A stretch of DNA of 10,044 bases from Deltaproteobacteria bacterium (GTDB taxonomy: Bacteria; Desulfobacterota; Desulfobacteria; Desulfobacterales; Desulfatirhabdiaceae), in contig JAPLJE010000317.1 of NCBI GenBank assembly GCA_026388755.1, positions 1-10,044 on the forward strand. The letters are read 5' to 3'. The translations under genes and the position numbers were made by a program. The notes under the pieces are model-generated. The model worked only from the letters and a program-made list of their open reading frames with translations, was not told the DNA's origin and searched no databases. Positions 1-10,044 of this stretch are shown here, in pieces; position 1 is the stretch's first letter; each line of letters opens with the position of its first letter.

Positions 1-492
1 GCCAACTGGGATAAAACCATCGATATTGCCGCGTTGGAGACGCTGCCGCCGGATGGCAGGCTTTCAGTTGTCCTGGGGTGGGGAATTCCCCTGGCAATTG
101 TCCTGATGATGGCCATCGGGTTTTTCGTTGGCGGCGCGCATGTGGGAACCAATATGATCACCGGATGGATACTGACAACCGGTATTCTGGCAGGTATTGG
201 TGCTGCCGCTGCCCTGGCCCATCCCCTGACGATCCTCTCCTCAATGCTGGCGGCTCCCATAACCACGCTTCATCCGCTGATTGCAGCGGGCTGGGTTTCG
301 GGTTTGGTTGAGGCCTTTTCGCGAAAACCCAGAGTCCGGGACATTGAGGCTCTGCCGCAGGATATTCTGTCTGTAAAAGGGTTCTGGAGGAACAAGGTGA
401 CGCGGATTCTTCTGGTGGTGGTGTTTACCAATATCGGAGCCTCAATCGGAACATTTGTGGCAGTGCCGCTGATGTTGAGAATGATTCACTGA
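1..492 (+). CDS. TraB/PrgY-family membrane protein, C-terminal part (5' end outside window)
   Basis: The reading frame is open from base 1 and ends with TGA at 490-492, giving about 163 residues of a protein whose start lies upstream. What is visible is the polytopic membrane end. One hydrophobic segment follows GRLSVVLGWGIP, a second stretch runs from MITGWILTTGILAG through the small-residue-rich AAAALAHPLTILSS, and a last helix is RILLVVVFTNIGASIGTF. The segment APITTLHPLIAAGWVSGLVE followed by a charged loop (RKPRVRDIEAL) is characteristic of the membrane half of bacterial and archaeal TraB/PrgY-like proteins. In that family an N-terminal soluble GumN/TraB domain would sit upstream, but it is not in the window. 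Enterococcal PrgY limits pheromone activity; the role of the widespread homologues is not settled. An internal TTG at 34 is an unlikely start because the frame continues upstream. No strong terminator follows the gene. Confidence 0.8.
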   Translation, partial: ANWDKTIDIAALETLPPDGRLSVVLGWGIPLAIVLMMAIGFFVGGAHVGTNMITGWILTTGILAGIGAAAALAHPLTILSSMLAAPITTLHPLIAAGWVSGLVEAFSRKPRVRDIEALPQDILSVKGFWRNKVTRILLVVVFTNIGASIGTFVAVPLMLRMIH

Positions 493-1362: not shown

Positions 1363-2304
1363 ATGCCTGAAGAACTTCCCAGACATTTTTTTACCAGAGC
1401 CTTTGTGAAAACCATCCTCCGCCGCTTGCTTGCACTGGCAACCCTGGTGGGGCTCTTTTATGGTCTGTCTGCGCTGGTATATGCCACCCGTGCCATATTC
1501 AAGGTCAAAATGAATTACGCCGTGGTTCTGGAACGTTTTGCCGGACAGCGTGAGGCCATCACGGATATCGGCTGGCATGTTCGCCTACCGTATTTTACCC
1601 GCATTGAACAGGAAGTCTCCCTGATGAACCAGACGCTGTTTCTGGGCGGAAGTCCGGAACCCATGAGAATCATTTCAAAGGAAAGCGTGGCACTCTGGAC
1701 GTCGGCCGTACTAACCTACCGGATCCGGGATCTGAAAACCTGGGCCATAGAGAATCTGGATCCTTTGCACCTGCTCCAGGGAGATTATGATGGCATTGTC
1801 AAGGACATCCTTCAGGCCCATGAGGTCAACCAGCTCATCAGCAGCCGTGAAAAAATCAAGGATGATATTTTTGTCGCCTTGAAATCCAGACCGATCAATG
1901 AAGGCGGACCCACACTTGAAAAAAAATACGGTATTGAAGTGGTGAGCTTTGTCCTGAAGGAAACCCGCTTTGGCGATAAACTGGTTGAAGCCACGGAAGA
2001 AAAGAAACGCAGGGAACTGATTGCCGAAGCGGATAATTATTCGGCCGACCAGGAAGCCAGCCGGATTCGAAAGCTCTATGCTGCCTATCTGGAAAGCATT
2101 CAATCCCTGCAGCAGGCCCTTGGCAGGCCGGACGGATCCACGGACACGGCGCTTCTGCAGTTTCTGACCCAGCAGAAATGGGCCACGGCCTATGAAAAAA
2201 ATGTTGAGGGCCAGAATACCATCGTGATTCAGAACACCCAGGATCCACCGGCAATTACGCTTCCCTCTGCGCAACCCCGTCGGAAACCCTCTGGAGAGCG
2301 GTAA
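1363..2304 (+). CDS. SPFH/Band-7 domain membrane protein (HflC/prohibitin-like)
   Basis: This is a 313-residue protein with one N-terminal membrane anchor (about residues 17-46, TILRRLLALATLVGLFYG and following). An SPFH/Band-7 domain of about residues 48-210 comes next. Supporting features are VVLERFAGQRE, GWHVRLPYF, the paired strands ending in AVLTYRIRD, and KYGIEVVSFVLKETRF before a charged helix (EATEEKKRRELIAEADNY) typical of HflC, HflK and prohibitin. The last 40 residues are Pro/Gln-rich and probably disordered. Family members build ring-shaped membrane scaffolds that hold or gate AAA+ proteases, as HflKC does with FtsH. The ATG at 1363 has a strong ribosome site, GAGGAG at 1352-1357. 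The stop TAA overlaps the next start by one base (TAATG), implying translational coupling with the two-AAA Lon-like protease and, by inference, a physical partnership. No FtsH gene is present here. Confidence 0.85.
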   Translation: MPEELPRHFFTRAFVKTILRRLLALATLVGLFYGLSALVYATRAIFKVKMNYAVVLERFAGQREAITDIGWHVRLPYFTRIEQEVSLMNQTLFLGGSPEPMRIISKESVALWTSAVLTYRIRDLKTWAIENLDPLHLLQGDYDGIVKDILQAHEVNQLISSREKIKDDIFVALKSRPINEGGPTLEKKYGIEVVSFVLKETRFGDKLVEATEEKKRRELIAEADNYSADQEASRIRKLYAAYLESIQSLQQALGRPDGSTDTALLQFLTQQKWATAYEKNVEGQNTIVIQNTQDPPAITLPSAQPRRKPSGER

Positions 2305-5300
2305 TGGCAAAAAGACTGACAAAAGAAGTCAGGTATATCAGTCTTCCTGAAAACCGGATTCAGGAAATCAGACGACTTGTGGCTTCCTGGCCGTATGAAA
2401 CCAAGGCGTTCATGCGCTCGCGCCTGAATCAGTTCAGCCCGCCTTCGGACTGGCTCAATACCATTTTGGAAAGTTTTCTGTCTTTCTTTTTTACAGCCCC
2501 GGAAAAGCGTTTTGTGATTCTGAAAGATCCAAAGATTCTGACCGACTGGCAGCGTCGTTTTGAAATTTCCGGAAAAACCAACCCCCAGCAGGCCTGGAAC
2601 AAGATTCTGGAAAAGGAAGTATCGGCCAAGGATTACATATATCTGCTGTCGCTTCTGGATAAGGACCTCAGTGACGTCCACGTTCCCGTGGAACTGACAT
2701 CGCTGTTTGATAAAATCTACCGGGCCCACATTCGAAAAGAATATCTCTCTGACCCGTCCGTTCCCAAGGCACCCCTGATTCTTTTTATCGGCCCGAGTGG
2801 CAGCGGCAAGACATCTACCGTCCACCAGACCCTGGAACAGGTTATTTTTGTCAACGAGGTGCGGCCCGAGGTGGATCTGGAGCAGAAAAAAGAAGAAGCC
2901 CTTGCCGGAGAACCGTTCTGGAAAACCATCGACCAGGTGGACCCGACCCTGGCGGCGGAAATCGCCAGACGGAAAAAAGTGGCTTTTTATAAGTCGTTGG
3001 CCCGCGTGCCGGGAATCAGCCGCCTTCTGAAAAACCGGATCGGCAAAAATCTCTCCCAGCTTGAAGAGCAGGGGGTTCTGGTCGATTATACTATGATTAC
3101 CCCGAACGATTACCAGACCGCTCTTGCCGGAGAGCCCGGCAATTATTTCAAGAAAGCGCTGGGTGATCCCCGAAGAACCACCATCCGACATGTCGAAGAG
3201 GCGCATAGCGCTTTTGGAAAAACCGATGGCAAGGACAGCGGCCCCGATCGTCAGCAGCGGACCCTGATCGATACCGCAAATGTCGTGATCGATGAAATCA
3301 TCAATGGACGAAGAGACTGTCTGCTGATCGCAACGACCGATCAGCCCGAGCGGTTTGATCAGACGATTTACCGGCGTTTTGTGGAAAAAGGCAAGATACT
3401 GGATCTGTCGGATTTCTGGAAAAACCCGGAAAATCTGATGGAAGTCGTTCGCCTGGAGCTGATTCGAAATGATATCGTGGTTACCGATTCGCCGGATGAC
3501 ATCTGCCTGCATAACGCCCGGTGCGTTTCCCCGTCACAGGTGCAATCGGCCGTGGACAGGATCTATGCCATTTTTCAGGAAAGAACCCTTAAAATCACCC
3601 CGGCCTATGTTCGAAAGCTGGTTCATTCCATCATAGAAATTCAGGGTGGCTTTTTGTCAGCCTATCTGGAGGATTCGCTTCTGGTAAGAAAAGCCTTTGA
3701 GCTGGTCGCCAGAAACGCTTTCGGTGATTTGTTTGAAAAAGTTGTGGACCGGATGGATCGCCACGTGCACTGGGATGAATATGTGGGAAAAGTAAAAGAC
3801 GTGTTTTCGGAAATGGCCAACAATTGCCTCTATTACAATGTCAGCGAAGAGAAAGGCGTGGTATTGAACGGCCCGCCTGGAAGCGGCAAAACCTTTCTCA
3901 TCCGGGCCTGGCTCAGCGAGAACAGCGATATACATGATATCTCCACCAGCGCGTCCGCGCTTCAGGACCCGGTAAATCCATGGGAAGGCGCCATAGAGAA
4001 CCTGGAAAAAGTCTATGACATCGCCAAAATGATTGCGCCTTCCCTGGTATTTTTTGATGAAGGGGATTCCCTGGCGCCCCGGCGCAGTACTTCCGGCGGT
4101 TCTCCTTCCGATAAACTGACCAATAAATTTCTGAATTTAATCGACGGCGAGATCCCTCTTAACCGGGTGTTTACGGTGCTGACCACCAACCGGCTCGATA
4201 TCCTGGATCCGGCACTGATCCGCTCCAAGCGGCTGAAGGTGCAAGAAGTATCCGGCCATCTGCGGCTAAAGGATATTACGGACATCATTCGACAGACTTT
4301 AAGGGATGTTCCCCTGGCCCCGGATCTTTCGATAGAAGCCATTGTGGAATCCGCCAAAGGACTCTGCAACACCCCGGCGGATTATTCTGCTTTTGTTGAA
4401 AAAGCCCGTTCGCTTCGCAGCACGGAATATGAAGTCCTGCAGCGGATTCGCGATCTTGCCCAAGCTTCGAGTGCGATCCGTGATAAATTTGTGAAATTCA
4501 ATTTTAAAACCCTGATGGGGATTCTTGAGGCCGTGGATGCGCCGCAGTCACTTCGGTCCGCCGTTTATGGAGATCCTGCAACGTTTTTATCCCGCTACGG
4601 CGACGTAATCGAGTTGCTTAAACCGGTTACAAGGATGGAAGGGTATCCGCTGATGTCTTCCCACTTGAATTCAGCGCGTCAGGAAATCTCTCACAGTCCG
4701 GTAAAAATCGGCAAGATGCAGCTCGATGATTTTCTGGAGGCCGAACTCAGCCAGGAACCCCAGGTGGGCTTTATTATCGGCGTGGGTGCAAACGATGTGT
4801 CCGGCGTTCTTCTTCCCATTGCCACCAGCCTGACTTACAGCCTGTCCGCCGAAAAAGTCCTCGTGACCGGGGCGGTATCATCCGGATCCGCGGCAACGGC
4901 TGAGCTTGACATGGCGGTTCAGATGACCCAGCAGTCGGCTCAGGAAGCCCTGACCATGGTGAAAAACTACCTTCAGGAACTGGATCCCAAGGTTAGCATT
5001 CCCAAGCTGCTGGGGGAATTTCTGGATCGGTATACCATCCATCATCAGCTTCTTTCCGCTTCCTACAATGTCGGCGGTCCTTCCGCGGGCTATGCGCTGG
5101 CGCTGAACACCCTTTCCGCATTGCTTCAGATTCCCATTTATCACGATTTCGGGATTACCGGGGCGCCCTGGACCAAGGGGGTTAAAAAAGGCGCGGTGGG
5201 CGGTTCCGTCATCATCGGCCGGCATCAGAAAAAAGCCGAAAAAGTCCTTCAGTATTTACGTAGGATGTATATGCCGCTTCAAAATTACAAAGATCTGGAA

Positions 5301-5732
5301 AATGAATTCCTGGTGAATTACTGGGAACAGGGAAAAGACATTCTGGGGATTTCCAATTTCGGTGAACTGGTTCCGGAAGTTGTCTGTCTGGGGCCGGGAT
5401 ATGAGGCAATGCTGAAGGAACTGATTGCCATGCGGATCGACTTTAAACTTAAAAAATCCAGGGGCAATTCCGCCTATGATATACATAAGGAAAATATCCT
5501 GAAAAACAAGAAAATCCTGAAAGATCAGCTTGAGACCCGGATTGTCAATCGGCTCGAAGCCATTCGGAAATACCTCAGAAATCCTGTCAGCGATCCCCAT
5601 CAGTCGCTGGAGGAGATTTTTCTGGAACAGGGTAACCCCAGACTTATTGGTATTACGCCGATTCTGAATTTTCTGAGCAATCAGAAAAAGTGGATAGGAC
5701 GCTGGTCCCTCAGGGGTCGAAAACTGGAATAA
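2304..5732 (+). CDS. large Lon-type (S16) protease with two AAA+ modules
   Basis: This is a 1142-residue protein. Residues 1-155 are charged and helical and do not look like the N-domain of classical Lon. AAA+ module 1 has Walker A GPSGSGKT (163-170), a possible Walker B HVEEAH (296-301) after an unusually long charged insert, and a sensor-1-like LLIATTD (340-346). AAA+ module 2 is canonical, with GPPGSGKT (523-530), Walker B LVFFDEGD (581-588), sensor-1 VLTTNR (625-630) and DPALIRSKR with a possible arginine finger. Residues about 816-1048 form a Lon protease domain with GGPSAG (nucleophile Ser927), ITGAPWTKG and a likely general-base Lys at 976 or 977 in GRHQKK. A basic helical tail of about 95 residues follows. 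No membrane segment is seen, so the SPFH partner encoded just upstream could provide membrane attachment. GGAG at 2293-2296 precedes the start. Inference: an ATP-dependent protease or unfoldase; substrates unknown. Confidence 0.85.
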   Translation: MAKRLTKEVRYISLPENRIQEIRRLVASWPYETKAFMRSRLNQFSPPSDWLNTILESFLSFFFTAPEKRFVILKDPKILTDWQRRFEISGKTNPQQAWNKILEKEVSAKDYIYLLSLLDKDLSDVHVPVELTSLFDKIYRAHIRKEYLSDPSVPKAPLILFIGPSGSGKTSTVHQTLEQVIFVNEVRPEVDLEQKKEEALAGEPFWKTIDQVDPTLAAEIARRKKVAFYKSLARVPGISRLLKNRIGKNLSQLEEQGVLVDYTMITPNDYQTALAGEPGNYFKKALGDPRRTTIRHVEEAHSAFGKTDGKDSGPDRQQRTLIDTANVVIDEIINGRRDCLLIATTDQPERFDQTIYRRFVEKGKILDLSDFWKNPENLMEVVRLELIRNDIVVTDSPDDICLHNARCVSPSQVQSAVDRIYAIFQERTLKITPAYVRKLVHSIIEIQGGFLSAYLEDSLLVRKAFELVARNAFGDLFEKVVDRMDRHVHWDEYVGKVKDVFSEMANNCLYYNVSEEKGVVLNGPPGSGKTFLIRAWLSENSDIHDISTSASALQDPVNPWEGAIENLEKVYDIAKMIAPSLVFFDEGDSLAPRRSTSGGSPSDKLTNKFLNLIDGEIPLNRVFTVLTTNRLDILDPALIRSKRLKVQEVSGHLRLKDITDIIRQTLRDVPLAPDLSIEAIVESAKGLCNTPADYSAFVEKARSLRSTEYEVLQRIRDLAQASSAIRDKFVKFNFKTLMGILEAVDAPQSLRSAVYGDPATFLSRYGDVIELLKPVTRMEGYPLMSSHLNSARQEISHSPVKIGKMQLDDFLEAELSQEPQVGFIIGVGANDVSGVLLPIATSLTYSLSAEKVLVTGAVSSGSAATAELDMAVQMTQQSAQEALTMVKNYLQELDPKVSIPKLLGEFLDRYTIHHQLLSASYNVGGPSAGYALALNTLSALLQIPIYHDFGITGAPWTKGVKKGAVGGSVIIGRHQKKAEKVLQYLRRMYMPLQNYKDLENEFLVNYWEQGKDILGISNFGELVPEVVCLGPGYEAMLKELIAMRIDFKLKKSRGNSAYDIHKENILKNKKILKDQLETRIVNRLEAIRKYLRNPVSDPHQSLEEIFLEQGNPRLIGITPILNFLSNQKKWIGRWSLRGRKLE

Positions 5733-5826: not shown

Positions 5827-7068
5827 TCAGCAGGGTGTGACAAGCCACTCAGCCTGGATGATGTGTTTCAGGCTCTCCGGAATTCCCGACGGGTTGCCTT
5901 TGACGGCAATCCATGAGGCTGGCATTCCCGGAGTCAGGAGTCCCATATCCGTGATTTCCAGAAGTCCAGCTCCGGTCTTTGTGGCGCATTGCACGACCTC
6001 CGGGATAGTATAGCCGGCTTCCAGAAGGAGTCTAAGTTCTTCCCTGACACTAATCCCATGATGGACCCCCAGGCTGCCGGCATCTGTTCCTATAGCAACC
6101 GGTACGCCCAGCTCCCTGGCCATTCGAAGCTGATCCATCTGATGGGAGAGGTTCCGCTTGGCAGTGTCGGCTTCACGGCTTGAAGGTGACAGATGGGAGG
6201 CATAAGCCCGCATGGTAAAGGCAGTCGGTACCCAGACGGTCTGCCTGTCCCGCATGCGCGCCAGGTTTTCGGCTCCCATGAAAAAACCATGCTCAATGGA
6301 ATGGCATCCGGCCTCAACGGCAATTTGTACCGGAAGTCTGCCATTGGCATGAACCATAACCTTAAGATGCCGGCGCCCGGCTTCGTTAACGGCTTGGGTG
6401 AGTTCCTCCAGGGAAAACTGCGGCAGGGTTTCCTTTCCAAAGCAGAGCAGGCTGTTGACCCCCGAATTGACCACTTTGATGTGATCGGGACGGGAATATT
6501 CCGGCAGCCTGGCTTCATGGCGAATGGCTTCTGCCAGCGATTGGCCGGGGGCCGGAGATCGACCTATCAGCTTTCCGTATCGCCCGCACTGATGCCAGGC
6601 TTTTCCGGCAACCTTGACATGAATCAACTTATGATGCGGCGAACCCTCACGGACGTGCGGTATTTTTCTATCATCGTTCAACTCCAGACTTTCTCGTTGA
6701 TACCGCTGAACAAGGCCCTTGCCGTCTCCGCCATCTCTTACAGCTCCGACACCGCTGTAAACATGTCGGGCGATATGTTCTGAAATGACGTCTTTCAGCT
6801 CATCATAGCCTGCTTCAAGCTGTCGTTTCCGTGCGGCAATGTCATCCGTCCCGGACATGAAAAGATGAACATGGCAATCCACCAGACTGGGAAGCAGGGT
6901 ATATTCCGAAAGATCCTGAAAAGGCGACGATTGGTGAAAGGCCGCCTTCGGCGCCGGTTTGATGGATTGGATGATATGTTGATGAATGGTTATCAGCACA
7001 TCCTTCCGAATAGGGCCGCTGCTGCCATCAATCAACCAGCCTGCATGAATGCATGATTTATCTGACAT
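5827..7068 (-). CDS. metal-dependent amidohydrolase (imidazolonepropionase/prolidase-like)
   Basis: This is a 413-residue enzyme of the amidohydrolase superfamily (TIM-barrel, binuclear or mononuclear metal). The N-terminal beta-sandwich strand HAGWLIDGSSGP leads into the metal-binding HVH motif (His66, His68) in LPSLVDCHVHLF. Further ligands are a lysine in DHIKVVNSG (Lys198, the position carboxylated in the prolidase-like subgroup), His240 in VMVHANG, His256 and His260 in CHSIEHG, and Asp329 in GTDAGSLG. The C-terminal LTPGMPASWIAVKGNP closes the second half of the sandwich, as in related deaminases, dipeptidases and imidazolonepropionases. There is no signal peptide, so it is cytoplasmic. 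The substrate is probably a cyclic amide or dipeptide, but this cannot be decided. The ATG at 7066-7068 is preceded by TCTGGA, a weak ribosome site. The gene converges on the Lon-like gene and diverges from minC, so it is probably transcribed alone. Confidence 0.85.
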   Translation of the reverse strand: MSDKSCIHAGWLIDGSSGPIRKDVLITIHQHIIQSIKPAPKAAFHQSSPFQDLSEYTLLPSLVDCHVHLFMSGTDDIAARKRQLEAGYDELKDVISEHIARHVYSGVGAVRDGGDGKGLVQRYQRESLELNDDRKIPHVREGSPHHKLIHVKVAGKAWHQCGRYGKLIGRSPAPGQSLAEAIRHEARLPEYSRPDHIKVVNSGVNSLLCFGKETLPQFSLEELTQAVNEAGRRHLKVMVHANGRLPVQIAVEAGCHSIEHGFFMGAENLARMRDRQTVWVPTAFTMRAYASHLSPSSREADTAKRNLSHQMDQLRMARELGVPVAIGTDAGSLGVHHGISVREELRLLLEAGYTIPEVVQCATKTGAGLLEITDMGLLTPGMPASWIAVKGNPSGIPESLKHIIQAEWLVTPC

Positions 7069-7226: not shown

Positions 7227-7967
7227 ATGCAAATCGATTTAGATGAGGTCTTGAGTTTGATTAATAACAACGGAATGGATATCCAGAACCGCGATAAATC
7301 ACAAGTGCGCTTGAAAGGGGTGAAAGACGGTTTCCGGGTCACTTTGGATCCAACGCTGCCGATAGGTTTTATTGAAGAGGAGCTGACGCGTCTTTTTAAC
7401 CAACTTCAGCATCTGGCATTCAATTCGCGTGTTATTCTGGATATCGGAGATACGGAAAATCACCAGGAAGTCGTTGAAAGTCTGGCTATTTTTTTAAAAA
7501 ATAAATATAATGTAAAATCAGTATCAGCGCCTCAGCGGGAACATGACATGATAGAGGACAAGCCTCGAAAACTGGATATGTCCAGTACCTGGCATCAACA
7601 CCACACCGATGCATTGATCATTGCCGGAAGGGTGAGGTCCGGTCAGAAGATCAACGCCAAAAAGCATCTGGTTATCCTGGGTGATGTGAATCCCGGAAGT
7701 GAGATTATTGCCGGAGGCGATATTCTGATCATGGGCAATCTCGGCGGTACTGCCCTGGCCGGCCAACCGGATAACGAAGACGCCATTATTCTGGCCATCG
7801 GATTCAGGCCTATTCAGATCCAGATCGGGGGCATCATTGCTGCGGGACTGCCGACGTCATCCGCGCATGCTCTTGAGTTTGCCCATGTTGAAAACGGGGG
7901 CATTGTTGTGGAAGACTATATTAAAGCAAATCCATTCGGACGGCTCACGTGGCCGGTAGTTCGTTAA
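7227..7967 (+). CDS. minC: septum site-determining protein MinC
   Basis: MinC blocks FtsZ ring assembly away from midcell and is recruited to the membrane by MinD. The 246-residue product has an N-terminal domain that would contact FtsZ (QVRLKGVKDGFRVTLDP at about residues 26-42). A variable linker follows, and then the beta-helical C-terminal domain that binds MinD. That domain contains the hallmark GRVRSGQKI (RSGQ at 137-140), VILGDVNPGSEI, AGGDILIMGNLGG and AIGFRPIQIQIGG. A C-terminal extension (LEFAHVENGGIVVEDYIK) goes beyond the minimal E. coli-type end. The family usually shows LRG where LGG stands here. The ATG at 7227 has no Shine-Dalgarno; an in-frame ATG at 7275 (MDIQNRDK) is closer to the conserved core and could be the true start. 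minD follows after 11 nt, so the genes form one operon. Confidence 0.93.
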   Translation: MQIDLDEVLSLINNNGMDIQNRDKSQVRLKGVKDGFRVTLDPTLPIGFIEEELTRLFNQLQHLAFNSRVILDIGDTENHQEVVESLAIFLKNKYNVKSVSAPQREHDMIEDKPRKLDMSSTWHQHHTDALIIAGRVRSGQKINAKKHLVILGDVNPGSEIIAGGDILIMGNLGGTALAGQPDNEDAIILAIGFRPIQIQIGGIIAAGLPTSSAHALEFAHVENGGIVVEDYIKANPFGRLTWPVVR

Positions 7968-7974
7968 AGAGGTG
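7968..7974 (+). promoter_or_regulatory. ribosome binding site that fixes the minD start at TTG 7979
   Basis: AGAGGTG lies directly after the minC stop codon. Its core AGAGG ends 6 nt before the TTG at 7979-7981, an ideal spacing. From this TTG the protein starts MEGKIIVITSGKGG, exactly as MinD proteins normally begin. The longer frame from the GTG at 7949 would add ten residues overlapping minC and has no such site. Confidence 0.8.
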
Positions 7975-7978
7975 TTCA

Positions 7979-8779
7979 TTGGAAGGAAAAATAATCGTCA
8001 TAACGTCTGGTAAAGGCGGTGTTGGCAAAACGACTGCAACAGCCTCTATCGGTGCGGCGTTGGCTTTGGAAGGCAAACAGGTTGCCGTGGTGGATATGGA
8101 TATCGGCCTGCGGAATCTGGATGTGGTGATGGGGCTTGAAAACCGCATTGTGTTTAATGTCGTGGATGCGGTTAAGGGCAAATGTAAGATCAAACAGGCT
8201 GCCATAAAGGATCGGCGGATTGAAAACCTGTATCTGATTCCCGCATCTCAAAGTGACAACAAAGATGTCCTGACTCCCGATGCCATGGTTCGGTTCTGCA
8301 AGGAGCTGCGAAAAGAATTTGATTTTGTGCTGCTGGACTGTCCTGCAGGCATCGAACGGGGCTTTGAAAACTCCGTTGCGCCAGCGGACGAGGCCGTGGT
8401 GATCTGCACGCCTGAAATTTCTTCTGTTCGCGATGCCGACCGGGTCATCGGACTGTTGTATGCGCGATCCATTACGCCGAAACTGATTGTCAACCGTATC
8501 GTTCCTGAAATGGTTGAAAGAGGGGATATGCTCAGTCATGAGGATGTGGTGGAAGTATTGTCTATCGAACTTCTGGGCCTGGTTGAGATGGACACCCAGG
8601 TTATCATATCGACCAATTCGGGAATTCCCCTGGTTCTGCAGAAAGATTCAAATGCTGGCCAGGCGTTCCGGCGTATTGCCATGCGAATGAATGGGCAAAA
8701 AAATCTTCCCATAGAAATTCCGCAAACTTCCAAATCCTTCTGGAAACGAGTTGGCCAAAAAATCGGCATCGGTAAATAA
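7979..8779 (+). CDS. minD: septum site-determining ATPase MinD (TTG start)
   Basis: MinD is a ParA/MRP-type ATPase that dimerises with ATP, binds the inner membrane, recruits MinC and is released by MinE-stimulated hydrolysis. From the TTG the product is 266 residues, a normal MinD length. It carries the deviant Walker A GKGGVGKTT with signature Lys12 and Lys17. Switch I Asp39 and Asp41 lie in VVDMDIGLRNLD, and Walker B Asp120 is in VLLDCPAGIE. IVNRIVPEMVERGDML and NSGIPLVLQKDSNAGQAFRR are conserved family segments. The C-terminal SFWKRVGQKIGIGK (about 253-266) is the amphipathic membrane-targeting helix. All key residues are intact. It sits 11 nt after minC and 9 nt before minE. Confidence 0.96.
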   Translation: MEGKIIVITSGKGGVGKTTATASIGAALALEGKQVAVVDMDIGLRNLDVVMGLENRIVFNVVDAVKGKCKIKQAAIKDRRIENLYLIPASQSDNKDVLTPDAMVRFCKELRKEFDFVLLDCPAGIERGFENSVAPADEAVVICTPEISSVRDADRVIGLLYARSITPKLIVNRIVPEMVERGDMLSHEDVVEVLSIELLGLVEMDTQVIISTNSGIPLVLQKDSNAGQAFRRIAMRMNGQKNLPIEIPQTSKSFWKRVGQKIGIGK

Positions 8780-8788
8780 GGTGATCCT

Positions 8789-9058
8789 ATGCTTCATGGA
8801 TGGTTGAAAAAGCTGATGGGCAAAGGCGACAGCAAGAATGTTGCCAAAAAGCGGCTTCAGTTTGCACTGATATATGACAAGCTGGAAGTATCGGACGATA
8901 TCCTGATCAAATTGCACCAGGATATCGTGGATGTTATTTCCCGCTATTTTGAAATTGACAAGGAAACCCTCAAACTGGACATTCGAAAATCAGAAGGCAA
9001 ATCCGCCCTGGTTGTCAATACGCCGATATTGTCCGCCAAACGGCCTCATCCGGCGTGA
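8789..9058 (+). CDS. minE: cell division topological specificity factor MinE
   Basis: MinE stimulates the ATPase of MinD and restricts MinCD to the poles, giving the oscillation that leaves midcell free for FtsZ. The 89-residue product has the expected three parts. They are a short amphipathic N-terminal membrane segment (LHGWLKKLMG), the MinD-contact helix KNVAKKRLQFALIYDK (16-31), and a dimerisation domain containing LHQDIVDVISRYFEID and KLDIRKSEGKSALVVNTPI. Length and order match proteobacterial MinE. The ATG at 8789 has the ribosome site AAGGTGAT, whose first bases overlap the minD stop, so the two genes are closely coupled. The C-terminus (LSAKRPHPA) is short and not conserved. No clear terminator on the + strand follows the gene. 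Confidence 0.95.
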   Translation: MLHGWLKKLMGKGDSKNVAKKRLQFALIYDKLEVSDDILIKLHQDIVDVISRYFEIDKETLKLDIRKSEGKSALVVNTPILSAKRPHPA

Positions 9059-9062
9059 CAGC

Positions 9063-9089
9063 AAAAAAATGATTCAGCCTTTTCGCTGA
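9063..9089 (-). terminator. Rho-independent terminator of the downstream minus-strand gene
   Basis: Read on the minus strand, TCAGC (9089-9085) and GCTGA (9078-9074) form a 5-bp stem with a 6-nt GAAAAG loop. It is followed after ATCA by seven T residues (9069-9063). The gene's own stop codon TGA lies in the 3' arm. The stem is short, but position and T-run fit a terminator for the gene ending at 9074. Transcription leaving minE on the other strand has no T-run after this hairpin. Confidence 0.5.
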
Positions 9090-10044
9090 CGATTGATGTC
9101 AGCAGGGCTAATAAAATAGGCGATATCCTGAATGGTGTTTTTCCCCAGAAGGAATTTGATATATTCAACGGCCAGAACCGACTGCATCTGATACTGGCTG
9201 AGCTGGCTCAGATATGAACTGTCTTTTATGGTTTCAGCAATCAGCTTTCCGCCTGAACTGCTATCCTCTTTATATTTTTGTGACAAGAGGGTGATGTAAT
9301 TTTTGACTTTGTCTCTGAGTTCGTCTGCAGAAAATGTTTTGATCATGGAAAATATCTCTGCCATTTGATCCGGTTCCGGAAGAGAAGAATATTCAAGAAT
9401 CCCTTTTACCGTATCTGTATACCGCTGAAGTCCGCGATAGATATGCTGGTTCTGCACCATGTTCATATCCGCCCATCCTGCGCGAAGCCATTTGAAAATT
9501 CCACAGTGCACCAGGGGACTCGCGCCACCTTGCTCAACGAATATGGATATGGTATAGGAATCATACATATAGGAATTCACCCATCCCAGCCCCGGTTTGT
9601 TCAGCCCGTTCTGGCCTGAATAGAAATAATCCCAGTTATCATCTTTTCCCAGAACCACTCCTTTTTTGCCGACATCCGAAACATTTTTCTGCTTGGATAT
9701 GGAAACCAGGACAGGGCGACCCTGATATTTCAACAGAATCAGGGTGCGGTTCAGGTCATACCCATAATAAGCGCCGGTATTCAGATCAGGAGTGATTTCT
9801 TCATGCTCGACCCCGGTGACCATGATCGGGTGATCCAGCCGCGACAGCATTGAAGATAAATCGGGAGGGAGCTGTTTTTTTCCGTTAACCTCTGTCCAGT
9901 AAGCCAGACGAATCGAAGAGGGCGATAGGATGAACGGCGGAATACCGGGATTAAAACCGATATTCAGGACATGTTTGAGATCTTTGCGAATATCAAATTC
10001 ATGATAGGCCGAAGCGATGTTTGTTCGATTCCCGGGGAAATATA
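9074..10044 (-). CDS. protein of unknown function (5' end outside window)
   Basis: The minus-strand frame is open from the window edge down to TGA at 9074-9076, giving 322 complete codons. The ATG at 9848-9850 is internal, because the frame continues upstream through FNPGIPPFILSPSSIRLAYW with no stop. I do not recognise a family. The visible part has aromatic-rich beta-type segments (LNTGAYYGYDLNRTLILLKY, DDNWDYFYSGQNG, GWVNSYMYDSYTISIFVEQG). A predicted helical C-terminal half follows (GILEYSSLPEPDQMAEIF; YQMQSVLAVEYIKFLLGKN). There is no membrane segment or clear catalytic motif in the visible portion. A conserved-looking CGIFKWLRAGWADMNMV contains a lone cysteine. The gene converges on minE and has its own terminator-like hairpin, so it is not part of the min operon. 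Confidence 0.75.
   Translation of the reverse strand, partial: YFPGNRTNIASAYHEFDIRKDLKHVLNIGFNPGIPPFILSPSSIRLAYWTEVNGKKQLPPDLSSMLSRLDHPIMVTGVEHEEITPDLNTGAYYGYDLNRTLILLKYQGRPVLVSISKQKNVSDVGKKGVVLGKDDNWDYFYSGQNGLNKPGLGWVNSYMYDSYTISIFVEQGGASPLVHCGIFKWLRAGWADMNMVQNQHIYRGLQRYTDTVKGILEYSSLPEPDQMAEIFSMIKTFSADELRDKVKNYITLLSQKYKEDSSSGGKLIAETIKDSSYLSQLSQYQMQSVLAVEYIKFLLGKNTIQDIAYFISPADINRQRKG
9085..9103. repeat. inverted repeat at the end of the unknown gene
   Basis: GCTGAC at 9085-9090 pairs perfectly with GTCAGC at 9098-9103 around a 7-nt loop. It lies within the last codons of the minus-strand gene and shares the bases 9085-9089 with the terminator hairpin, so the two structures exclude each other. 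Confidence 0.4.

What the first reader, a model, noticed from the sequence alone, without database searches (positions are those of the whole stretch)
1363..5732. SPFH membrane scaffold translationally coupled to a two-AAA+ Lon-like protease
The SPFH/Band-7 gene and the 1142-residue AAA-AAA-Lon gene overlap by one base (TAATG), and the protease has no membrane segment of its own. Known SPFH proteins (HflKC, prohibitins) form membrane cages around FtsH-type proteases. Here the partner would instead be an S16 protease with two ATPase modules. This suggests an FtsH-independent membrane quality-control or regulated-proteolysis machine, perhaps with the hydrolase encoded upstream.
Basis: partly seen in the sequence, partly recalled or inferred. 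Interest (0 to 1): 0.72.

Follow-up and report, generated by a model that had tools for sequence, protein, structure and literature searches.

The report
Membrane scaffold paired with double-motor protease
In some sulfur- and metal-cycling bacteria a membrane scaffold gene sits directly beside a gene for an unusual protein shredder with two motors and a Lon-type blade, which suggests an undescribed machine for destroying proteins at the membrane.

Summary
An SPFH/Band-7 gene (1363-2304) and a 1142-residue AAA-AAA-S16 gene (2304-5732) overlap by one base. The pairing is no accident: in 56 of 56 distinct loci with an uncut protease start (window included, 51-100% identity) the SPFH gene lies directly upstream on the same strand. 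In 395 genomes of the phylum, at the thresholds used, both genes occur in the same 12 and neither in the other 383.

The protease is not a standard Lon. Its two ATPase modules align to tandem motors such as Rix7 and p97; the second is a classic AAA module whose best match among ten own-genome loci is FtsH. The S16 domain keeps Ser927 and Lys977 (241 of 241 near relatives) but with 49 rather than 42 residues between them. A helical tail follows.

The pair is an addition to FtsH (12 of 12 carriers; HflC in 11 of 12), so 'FtsH-independent' is unproven. The upstream hydrolase is not a conserved partner. Topology is open: charge bias leans weakly to SPFH domains outside, where a cytosolic protease could touch only the basic N-terminal tail.

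Best reading: a dedicated scaffold-protease module of a new architecture. Physical contact is inferred, not shown.

The parts
1363..2304 (+). SPFH/Band-7 membrane protein, 313 aa: basic N-tail 1-21, membrane segment 22-40, SPFH domain about 44-200, long helix 203-253, short helix and C-terminal beta hairpin 276-289
2304..5732 (+). AAA-AAA-S16 protease, 1142 aa
2304..2753 (+). N-terminal, mostly helical region, residues 1-150
   Evidence: model secondary structure
2754..3743 (+). first AAA+ module, about residues 151-480: Walker A GPSGSGKT, E298-E299 in the Walker B place, R357-R358
   Evidence: G163, G166, G168, K169, E298, E299, T344, R358 invariant in 241 of 241, R357 in 240; PF00004 29 bits
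3789..4463 (+). second, classic-type AAA module, about residues 496-720: Walker A GPPGSGKT, Walker B FFDEGD, then TTNRLDILDPALIRSKR
   Evidence: G523, G526, G528, K529, T530, D585, E586, D588, T627, T628, N629, R640, R643 invariant in 241 of 241; best match among ten own-genome loci is FtsH, 57.0 bits, versus 17.3 for a Lon
4701..5399 (+). S16 (Lon-type) peptidase domain, about residues 800-1032; catalytic Ser927 (5082-5084) and Lys977 (5232-5234)
   Evidence: S927 and K977 invariant in 143 of 143 and 241 of 241, overlapping sets; profile alignment to the genome's own Lon puts K977 on the last lysine of GGLKEK
5400..5729 (+). C-terminal helical extension after the peptidase domain, about residues 1033-1142
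   Evidence: model helices 1031-1052, 1059-1092, 1112-1141
2302..2306 (+). TAATG stop-start overlap of one base; in 5 of 8 inspected Desulfuromonadales loci the two genes overlap by 71 bases
   Evidence: sequence; gene spacing in relatives

Best explanation
The two genes encode one functional unit: a dedicated SPFH membrane scaffold and its own ATP-driven protease. Shown by sequence: constant adjacency in the loci seen, tight spacing, co-occurrence, intact ATPase motifs in both modules and an intact Ser-Lys dyad. Inferred: the protease assembles as a hexamer with a p97-like double ring stacked on an S16 peptidase ring. The SPFH protein multimerises in the membrane and recruits that hexamer, through its conserved basic N-terminal tail if the SPFH domain faces outward, or by a direct cage if it faces inward. 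Membrane or membrane-proximal substrates are then pulled through the two motor rings and cut. It would work like FtsH-HflKC, but with the membrane anchor in the scaffold instead of the protease.
For: SPFH directly upstream in 56 of 56 distinct loci, down to 51% protease identity. The same 12 of 395 genomes carry both, with no orphan of either at the thresholds used. Overlapping or nearly touching genes in most loci (the exceptions are +37, +55, +94 and +151 bases). Other neighbours are not conserved: the most shared other gene cluster occurs in 11 of 37 loci examined. ATPase and catalytic residues invariant among near relatives. Tandem AAA fold. SPFH fold. Precedent for SPFH proteins holding AAA proteases: HflKC-FtsH (PMC12048511, passages) and prohibitin-m-AAA (PMC12994072, passages).
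Against: No contact between the two proteins was computed or measured. Charge bias leans weakly to the SPFH domain and the protease lying on opposite sides of the membrane. No expression, oligomer or substrate data. The S16 part of the model is poor (pLDDT below 50 over 824-875, 911-925 and 952-978), so catalytic geometry is not shown. Fold matches have low whole-chain TM-scores and large rmsd (best Foldseek rows: 0.24 for the protease; 0.39 for SPFH). The invariance counts come from the best-scoring 120 hits of each of two searches, that is, from near relatives. FtsH is present in all 12 carriers tested, so the need for a second membrane protease is unclear.
Confidence: 0.62

Rival explanations
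1. The protease processes or turns over its own SPFH neighbour, as the long NfeD protease PH1510 cleaves the C-terminus of the stomatin PH1511 encoded in the same operon. The pair would be a scaffold and its switch, not a substrate-degrading machine.
For: The PH1510-PH1511 precedent is an SPFH-protease operon (PMC13086221, passages). The SPFH C-terminus after about residue 300 varies in length and sequence and could be a cleavable tail.
Against: That precedent uses a ClpP-type domain; two ATPase modules would be unusual equipment for clipping one tail (inference). If the SPFH domain faces outward, its C-terminus is out of reach of a cytosolic protease.
Confidence: 0.17
2. The two proteins share an operon and a stress response but work separately: a soluble Cdc48-like unfoldase-protease in the cytosol and an SPFH membrane organiser, with no physical complex.
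For: No membrane segment in the protease and a weak lean to opposite sides of the membrane; no contact data.
Against: Genes that only share regulation would be expected to part in some lineages (inference); here 56 of 56 loci keep them together and neither occurs alone in 395 genomes at the thresholds used.
Confidence: 0.16
3. The peptidase part is inactive or only regulatory and the protein acts mainly as a membrane-linked unfoldase or disaggregase, the S16 ring serving as a structural base.
For: S16 similarity is weak (Lon_C 27 bits); seven residues are inserted between Ser and Lys compared with the genome's own Lon; the peptidase region is poorly modelled.
Against: GGPSAG (924-929) and K977 are invariant in 143 of 143 and the dyad in 241 of 241 sequences, as expected under selection for catalysis.
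Confidence: 0.05

Closest known systems
FtsH with HflK/HflC (bacteria) and m-AAA protease with prohibitins (mitochondria)
   Same: An SPFH membrane protein paired with an AAA-driven protease; the second AAA module here matches FtsH best among ten own-genome loci scored
   Different: FtsH has its own membrane helices, one AAA module and a zinc peptidase (PMC12048511, passages), and in the own genome lies on another contig than hflC. Here: two AAA modules, an S16 peptidase, no membrane segment, and one SPFH gene in a tight operon. The SPFH protein does not match the hflC/hflK models
Lon proteases (MEROPS S16: LonA, LonB, LonC, LonBA)
   Same: S16 peptidase domain with Ser-Lys dyad and a proline before the serine, the A-type feature given in PMC9569914 (passages)
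   Different: That paper gives one ATPase domain with an AAA+ module, and exactly 42 residues between Ser and Lys in LonA and LonB; here two modules, a classic-type motor next to the peptidase, 49 residues between, and a helical tail
p97/Cdc48, Rix7, NVL (type II AAA)
   Different: These have no built-in peptidase (my knowledge); CDC48 model scores 85.9 bits against a cut-off of 802.65
Stomatin/SPFH with NfeD-ClpP-type protease (PH1511/PH1510, YqfA/YqeZ)
   Same: SPFH gene in an operon with a protease gene (PMC2636767, passages and section 11; PMC13086221, passages)
   Different: The partner there is a ClpP-domain NfeD protein; here the C-terminal 343 residues match only Lon_C at E up to 0.01

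Membership tests
SPFH/Band-7 superfamily | Band_7 domain above Pfam cut-off | tested here: met
   58 bits against 23.6
SPFH/Band-7 superfamily | SPFH fold followed by long helix | tested here: met
HflC / HflK | NCBIfam TIGR01932 / TIGR01933 above cut-off | tested here: not met
   neither model matches the window protein at E up to 10; one Desulfuromonadales orthologue 23.7 bits to hflC against 134.4
HflC / HflK | SPFH domain on the periplasmic side | tested here: inconclusive
   K/R excess before the segment in 22 of 23, 1 tie; net charge excess there in 16 of 23, 4 ties, 3 against; up to 20 residues counted before the segment and 15 after
Lon protease (S16) | S16 domain with Ser-Lys dyad | tested here: met
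   Lon_C 27 bits against 21.1; dyad invariant and in register with own Lon
Lon protease (S16) | 42 residues between Ser and Lys | tested here: not met
   S927 and K977 enclose 49 residues; 7-residue insertion against own Lon; rule from PMC9569914 (passages)
Lon protease (S16) | full-length Lon model above cut-off | tested here: not met
   TIGR00763 37.7 bits against 608, matched at 801-955; TIGR02902 39.5 against 723; TIGR00764 33 against 516.6
FtsH | full-length FtsH model above cut-off | tested here: not met
   66 bits against 600, best stretch 517-701 only
FtsH | own membrane segments | tested here: not met
   no segment by hydropathy
Cdc48/p97 | CDC48 model above cut-off | tested here: not met
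   85.9 bits against 802.65
Type II AAA (p97/Rix7-like) architecture | two AAA modules in tandem with type II fold | tested here: met
SPFH-protease supercomplex (FtsH-HflKC-like) | physical SPFH-protease complex | not testable with these tools
   only single chains can be modelled

The most novel reading that the evidence does not exclude
This is a further kind of SPFH-protease machine, built on a p97-like double motor with a peptidase fused to it: in effect a bacterial one-chain counterpart of p97 plus proteasome, held at the membrane by its own SPFH scaffold, that extracts and degrades membrane proteins in parallel with FtsH-HflKC.
Probability: 0.4. Interest if true: 0.8.

Novelty: new variant of a known kind. 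Interest (0 to 1): 0.6.

Why it matters
SPFH scaffolds are known to hold FtsH-type proteases; whether holding an AAA protease is a general SPFH role is open. A protease of another make with its own constant SPFH neighbour makes that testable in one small operon. The protease also joins a p97-like double motor to a Lon-type peptidase in one chain, an arrangement not in the S16 architecture table of PMC2605481 (passages; 91 genomes, two of them Deltaproteobacteria), so it could show how a peptidase ring works under a type II AAA motor.

Tried and rejected
Dead catalytic site: my first reading put valine or isoleucine at the lysine position. The profile alignment to the genome's own Lon puts K977 there, with seven residues inserted before it, so this was dropped.

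Upstream alpha/beta hydrolase as a third subunit: found in 6 of 22 genome-contig loci plus the window; dropped.

Sigma-54 or sigma-70 control: a sigma-54 pattern (5 found, 4.96 expected) and promoter-like sites (4 found, 5.1 expected) are at chance level.

Defence system: PADLOC gives sub-family AAA matches (IetA, TRIP13, MkoA on the second module, mad8 on the first P-loop) and nothing for SPFH; not taken as evidence of defence.

Wider spread: a plasmid search found 483 records with a match and none covering 80% of the protease; the 25 listed rows (458 not listed) cover 27-38% and are annotated mostly as AAA family ATPases. The best (Tsukamurella) has no SPFH gene among the 10 features shown. 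Other phyla could not be sampled, so absence elsewhere is not claimed. In one search only the two best candidates per genome were scored, so distant copies may be missed. The protein searches listed the best 120 of 706, 585 and 1346 hits.

Count corrected: one search gave 68 of 68 but counted places twice; one search gives 56 distinct (39 keyed plus 17 of 18 unkeyed, L054 and L093 being one place).

Charge count corrected: my notebook says 23 of 23 have more K/R before the membrane segment; one search shows 22 and one tie (L004), and net charge is equal in the window protein (+3, +3).

Gene clustering chose antisense shadow frames in some GC-rich loci and so shows SPFH in only 22 of 37; tblastn shows it in those loci too. 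The 37 contain at least one repeat (L003 and L047).

Fold search for the peptidase domain: the list is filled by AAA chains (rows span residues 2-803), so the S16 and C-terminal parts are barely tested by structure.

Literature: ten searches listed no paper that, from title or abstract start, describes an SPFH-Lon pair or an AAA-AAA-S16 protein; some searches listed only 15 of 33, 15 of 17, 10 of 12 and 12 of 1,028 papers. The small SPFH subfamilies 6-12 of PMC2636767 could include this SPFH; not tested.

Full report
WHAT IS THERE. The window holds, on the + strand, an SPFH/Band-7 gene (1363-2304, 313 aa) and a 1142-aa gene (2304-5732) that stop and start in one TAATG. Pfam finds Band_7 in the first and AAA plus Lon_C in the second. 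Neighbours are an alpha/beta hydrolase (588-1343), a convergent amidohydrolase (5827-7068, minus) and minCDE (7227-9058). The window is one contig of a 4.0 Mb, 839-contig genome with a single full-length copy.

THE PAIRING. A scan of genome contigs gave 29 loci, mostly titled Desulfobacteraceae, Desulfobacterales or Deltaproteobacteria. SPFH lies immediately upstream in 22 of the 22 whose protease start is not cut. In 395 genomes of the phylum the protease occurs in 12 (E up to 1e-30) and the SPFH orthologue in the same 12 (E up to 1e-20); all 12 are adjacent. In the order of genome G225, whose copy is identical to a Geothermobacter protein, the protease occurs in 39 of 136 genomes, and 30 of the 30 fetched loci have SPFH upstream on the same strand. 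Removing repeats leaves 56 distinct loci, the window included, all 56 adjacent, at 51-100% identity to the window protein. Seven loci cut by contig ends cannot be judged. Spacing runs from -29 to +33 bases in the genome-contig loci. It is mostly overlapping in the Desulfuromonadales order, where 5 of 8 inspected loci overlap by 71 bases; exceptions are +37, +55, +94 and +151. By contrast the most shared other neighbour cluster is in 11 of 37 loci. The second clade includes Geothermobacter, Desulfuromonas, Geoalkalibacter and Malonomonas by source names. The co-occurrence p value (3.9e-23) is not corrected for ancestry.

THE SCAFFOLD. The SPFH model (mean pLDDT 62.5) has a helix through the membrane segment, the SPFH fold, a long helix and a C-terminal hairpin. 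VIA Z runs from 10.8 (prohibitin) through 10.0 (flotillin) and 9.6 (stomatin, erlin, 7vhq) to 8.8 (QmcA) and 8.0-9.3 (HflK/C entries), so no closer membership is claimed. It matches neither the hflC nor the hflK model. Before the membrane segment there are more K/R residues than after it in 22 of 23 proteins, one tie (4-8 versus 2-4). Counting acidic residues too, the excess is there in 16 of 23, equal in 4 (the window among them) and reversed in 3, and the counted stretch is longer on the N side. R12 is invariant and R20 and R21 nearly so in 56 sequences. The positive-inside rule thus leans to N-in, SPFH-out, like HflKC; YbbK/QmcA has the opposite orientation and also interacts with FtsH (PMC2636767, section 11).

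HOW IT PROBABLY WORKS. Shown: constant gene pair in the loci seen, conserved catalytic and ATPase residues, tandem AAA and SPFH folds. Inferred: a hexameric double ring over an S16 ring, recruited to the membrane by the SPFH oligomer, pulling and degrading membrane-proximal proteins. If the SPFH domain is outside, the cytosolic handle is the short basic N-tail, which would replace the membrane anchor that FtsH carries itself. Carriers keep FtsH (12 of 12) and HflC (11 of 12 over cut-off), so this is an addition and not a replacement.

AGAINST KNOWN SYSTEMS. SPFH-protease partnerships in the papers seen are FtsH-type (PMC12048511, PMC12994072, passages) or ClpP/NfeD-type (PMC2636767, PMC13086221, passages). 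The S16 architecture table of PMC2605481 (passages) has no AAA-AAA-S16 form. Ten literature searches (four of them with capped lists) listed no paper that appears, from title or abstract start, to describe this pair. I therefore call it a new variant of a known kind: an SPFH-linked AAA protease with an unlisted motor-peptidase architecture.

VERDICT. Observation confirmed, interpretation partly supported. That the two genes form one functional unit is well supported; that they form a physical membrane machine is moderately so (0.62).

Noticed in passing
L008, L011, L025, upstream of the SPFH gene: Three relatives share two genes just upstream of the pair; in L008 these are a different SPFH protein (Band_7_1 with zinc ribbons) and a protein with a weak double-zinc-ribbon match.
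   Followed up: partly
L080, L081, L086, L091, L105: The SPFH and protease genes overlap by 71 bases with an ATG in the same place, a long overlap kept in five Desulfuromonadales-order genomes inspected.
   Followed up: partly
own genome contig C453 (L037): The hflK frame upstream of hflC reads interrupted by stop codons in this assembly; hflC is intact. Sequencing error or real was not decided.
   Followed up: no
window 9074-9850, minus strand: 258-aa reading frame (322 aa open at the window edge) with no Pfam match at E up to 1 and no NCBIfam match at E up to 0.01.
   Followed up: no
window 1-492: Partial gene without a Pfam match by itself; 91% identical to the C-terminal part of a TraB/PrgY/GumN-family protein in L002.
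   Followed up: partly
window residue R973 of the protease (5220-5222): Arginine where the other 142 of 143 aligned sequences have glycine, four residues before the catalytic lysine.
   Followed up: no
window 2229-3512, minus strand: A 427-aa antisense reading frame over the gene junction; long antisense frames also stay open in some relatives; looks like a shadow frame.
   Followed up: no
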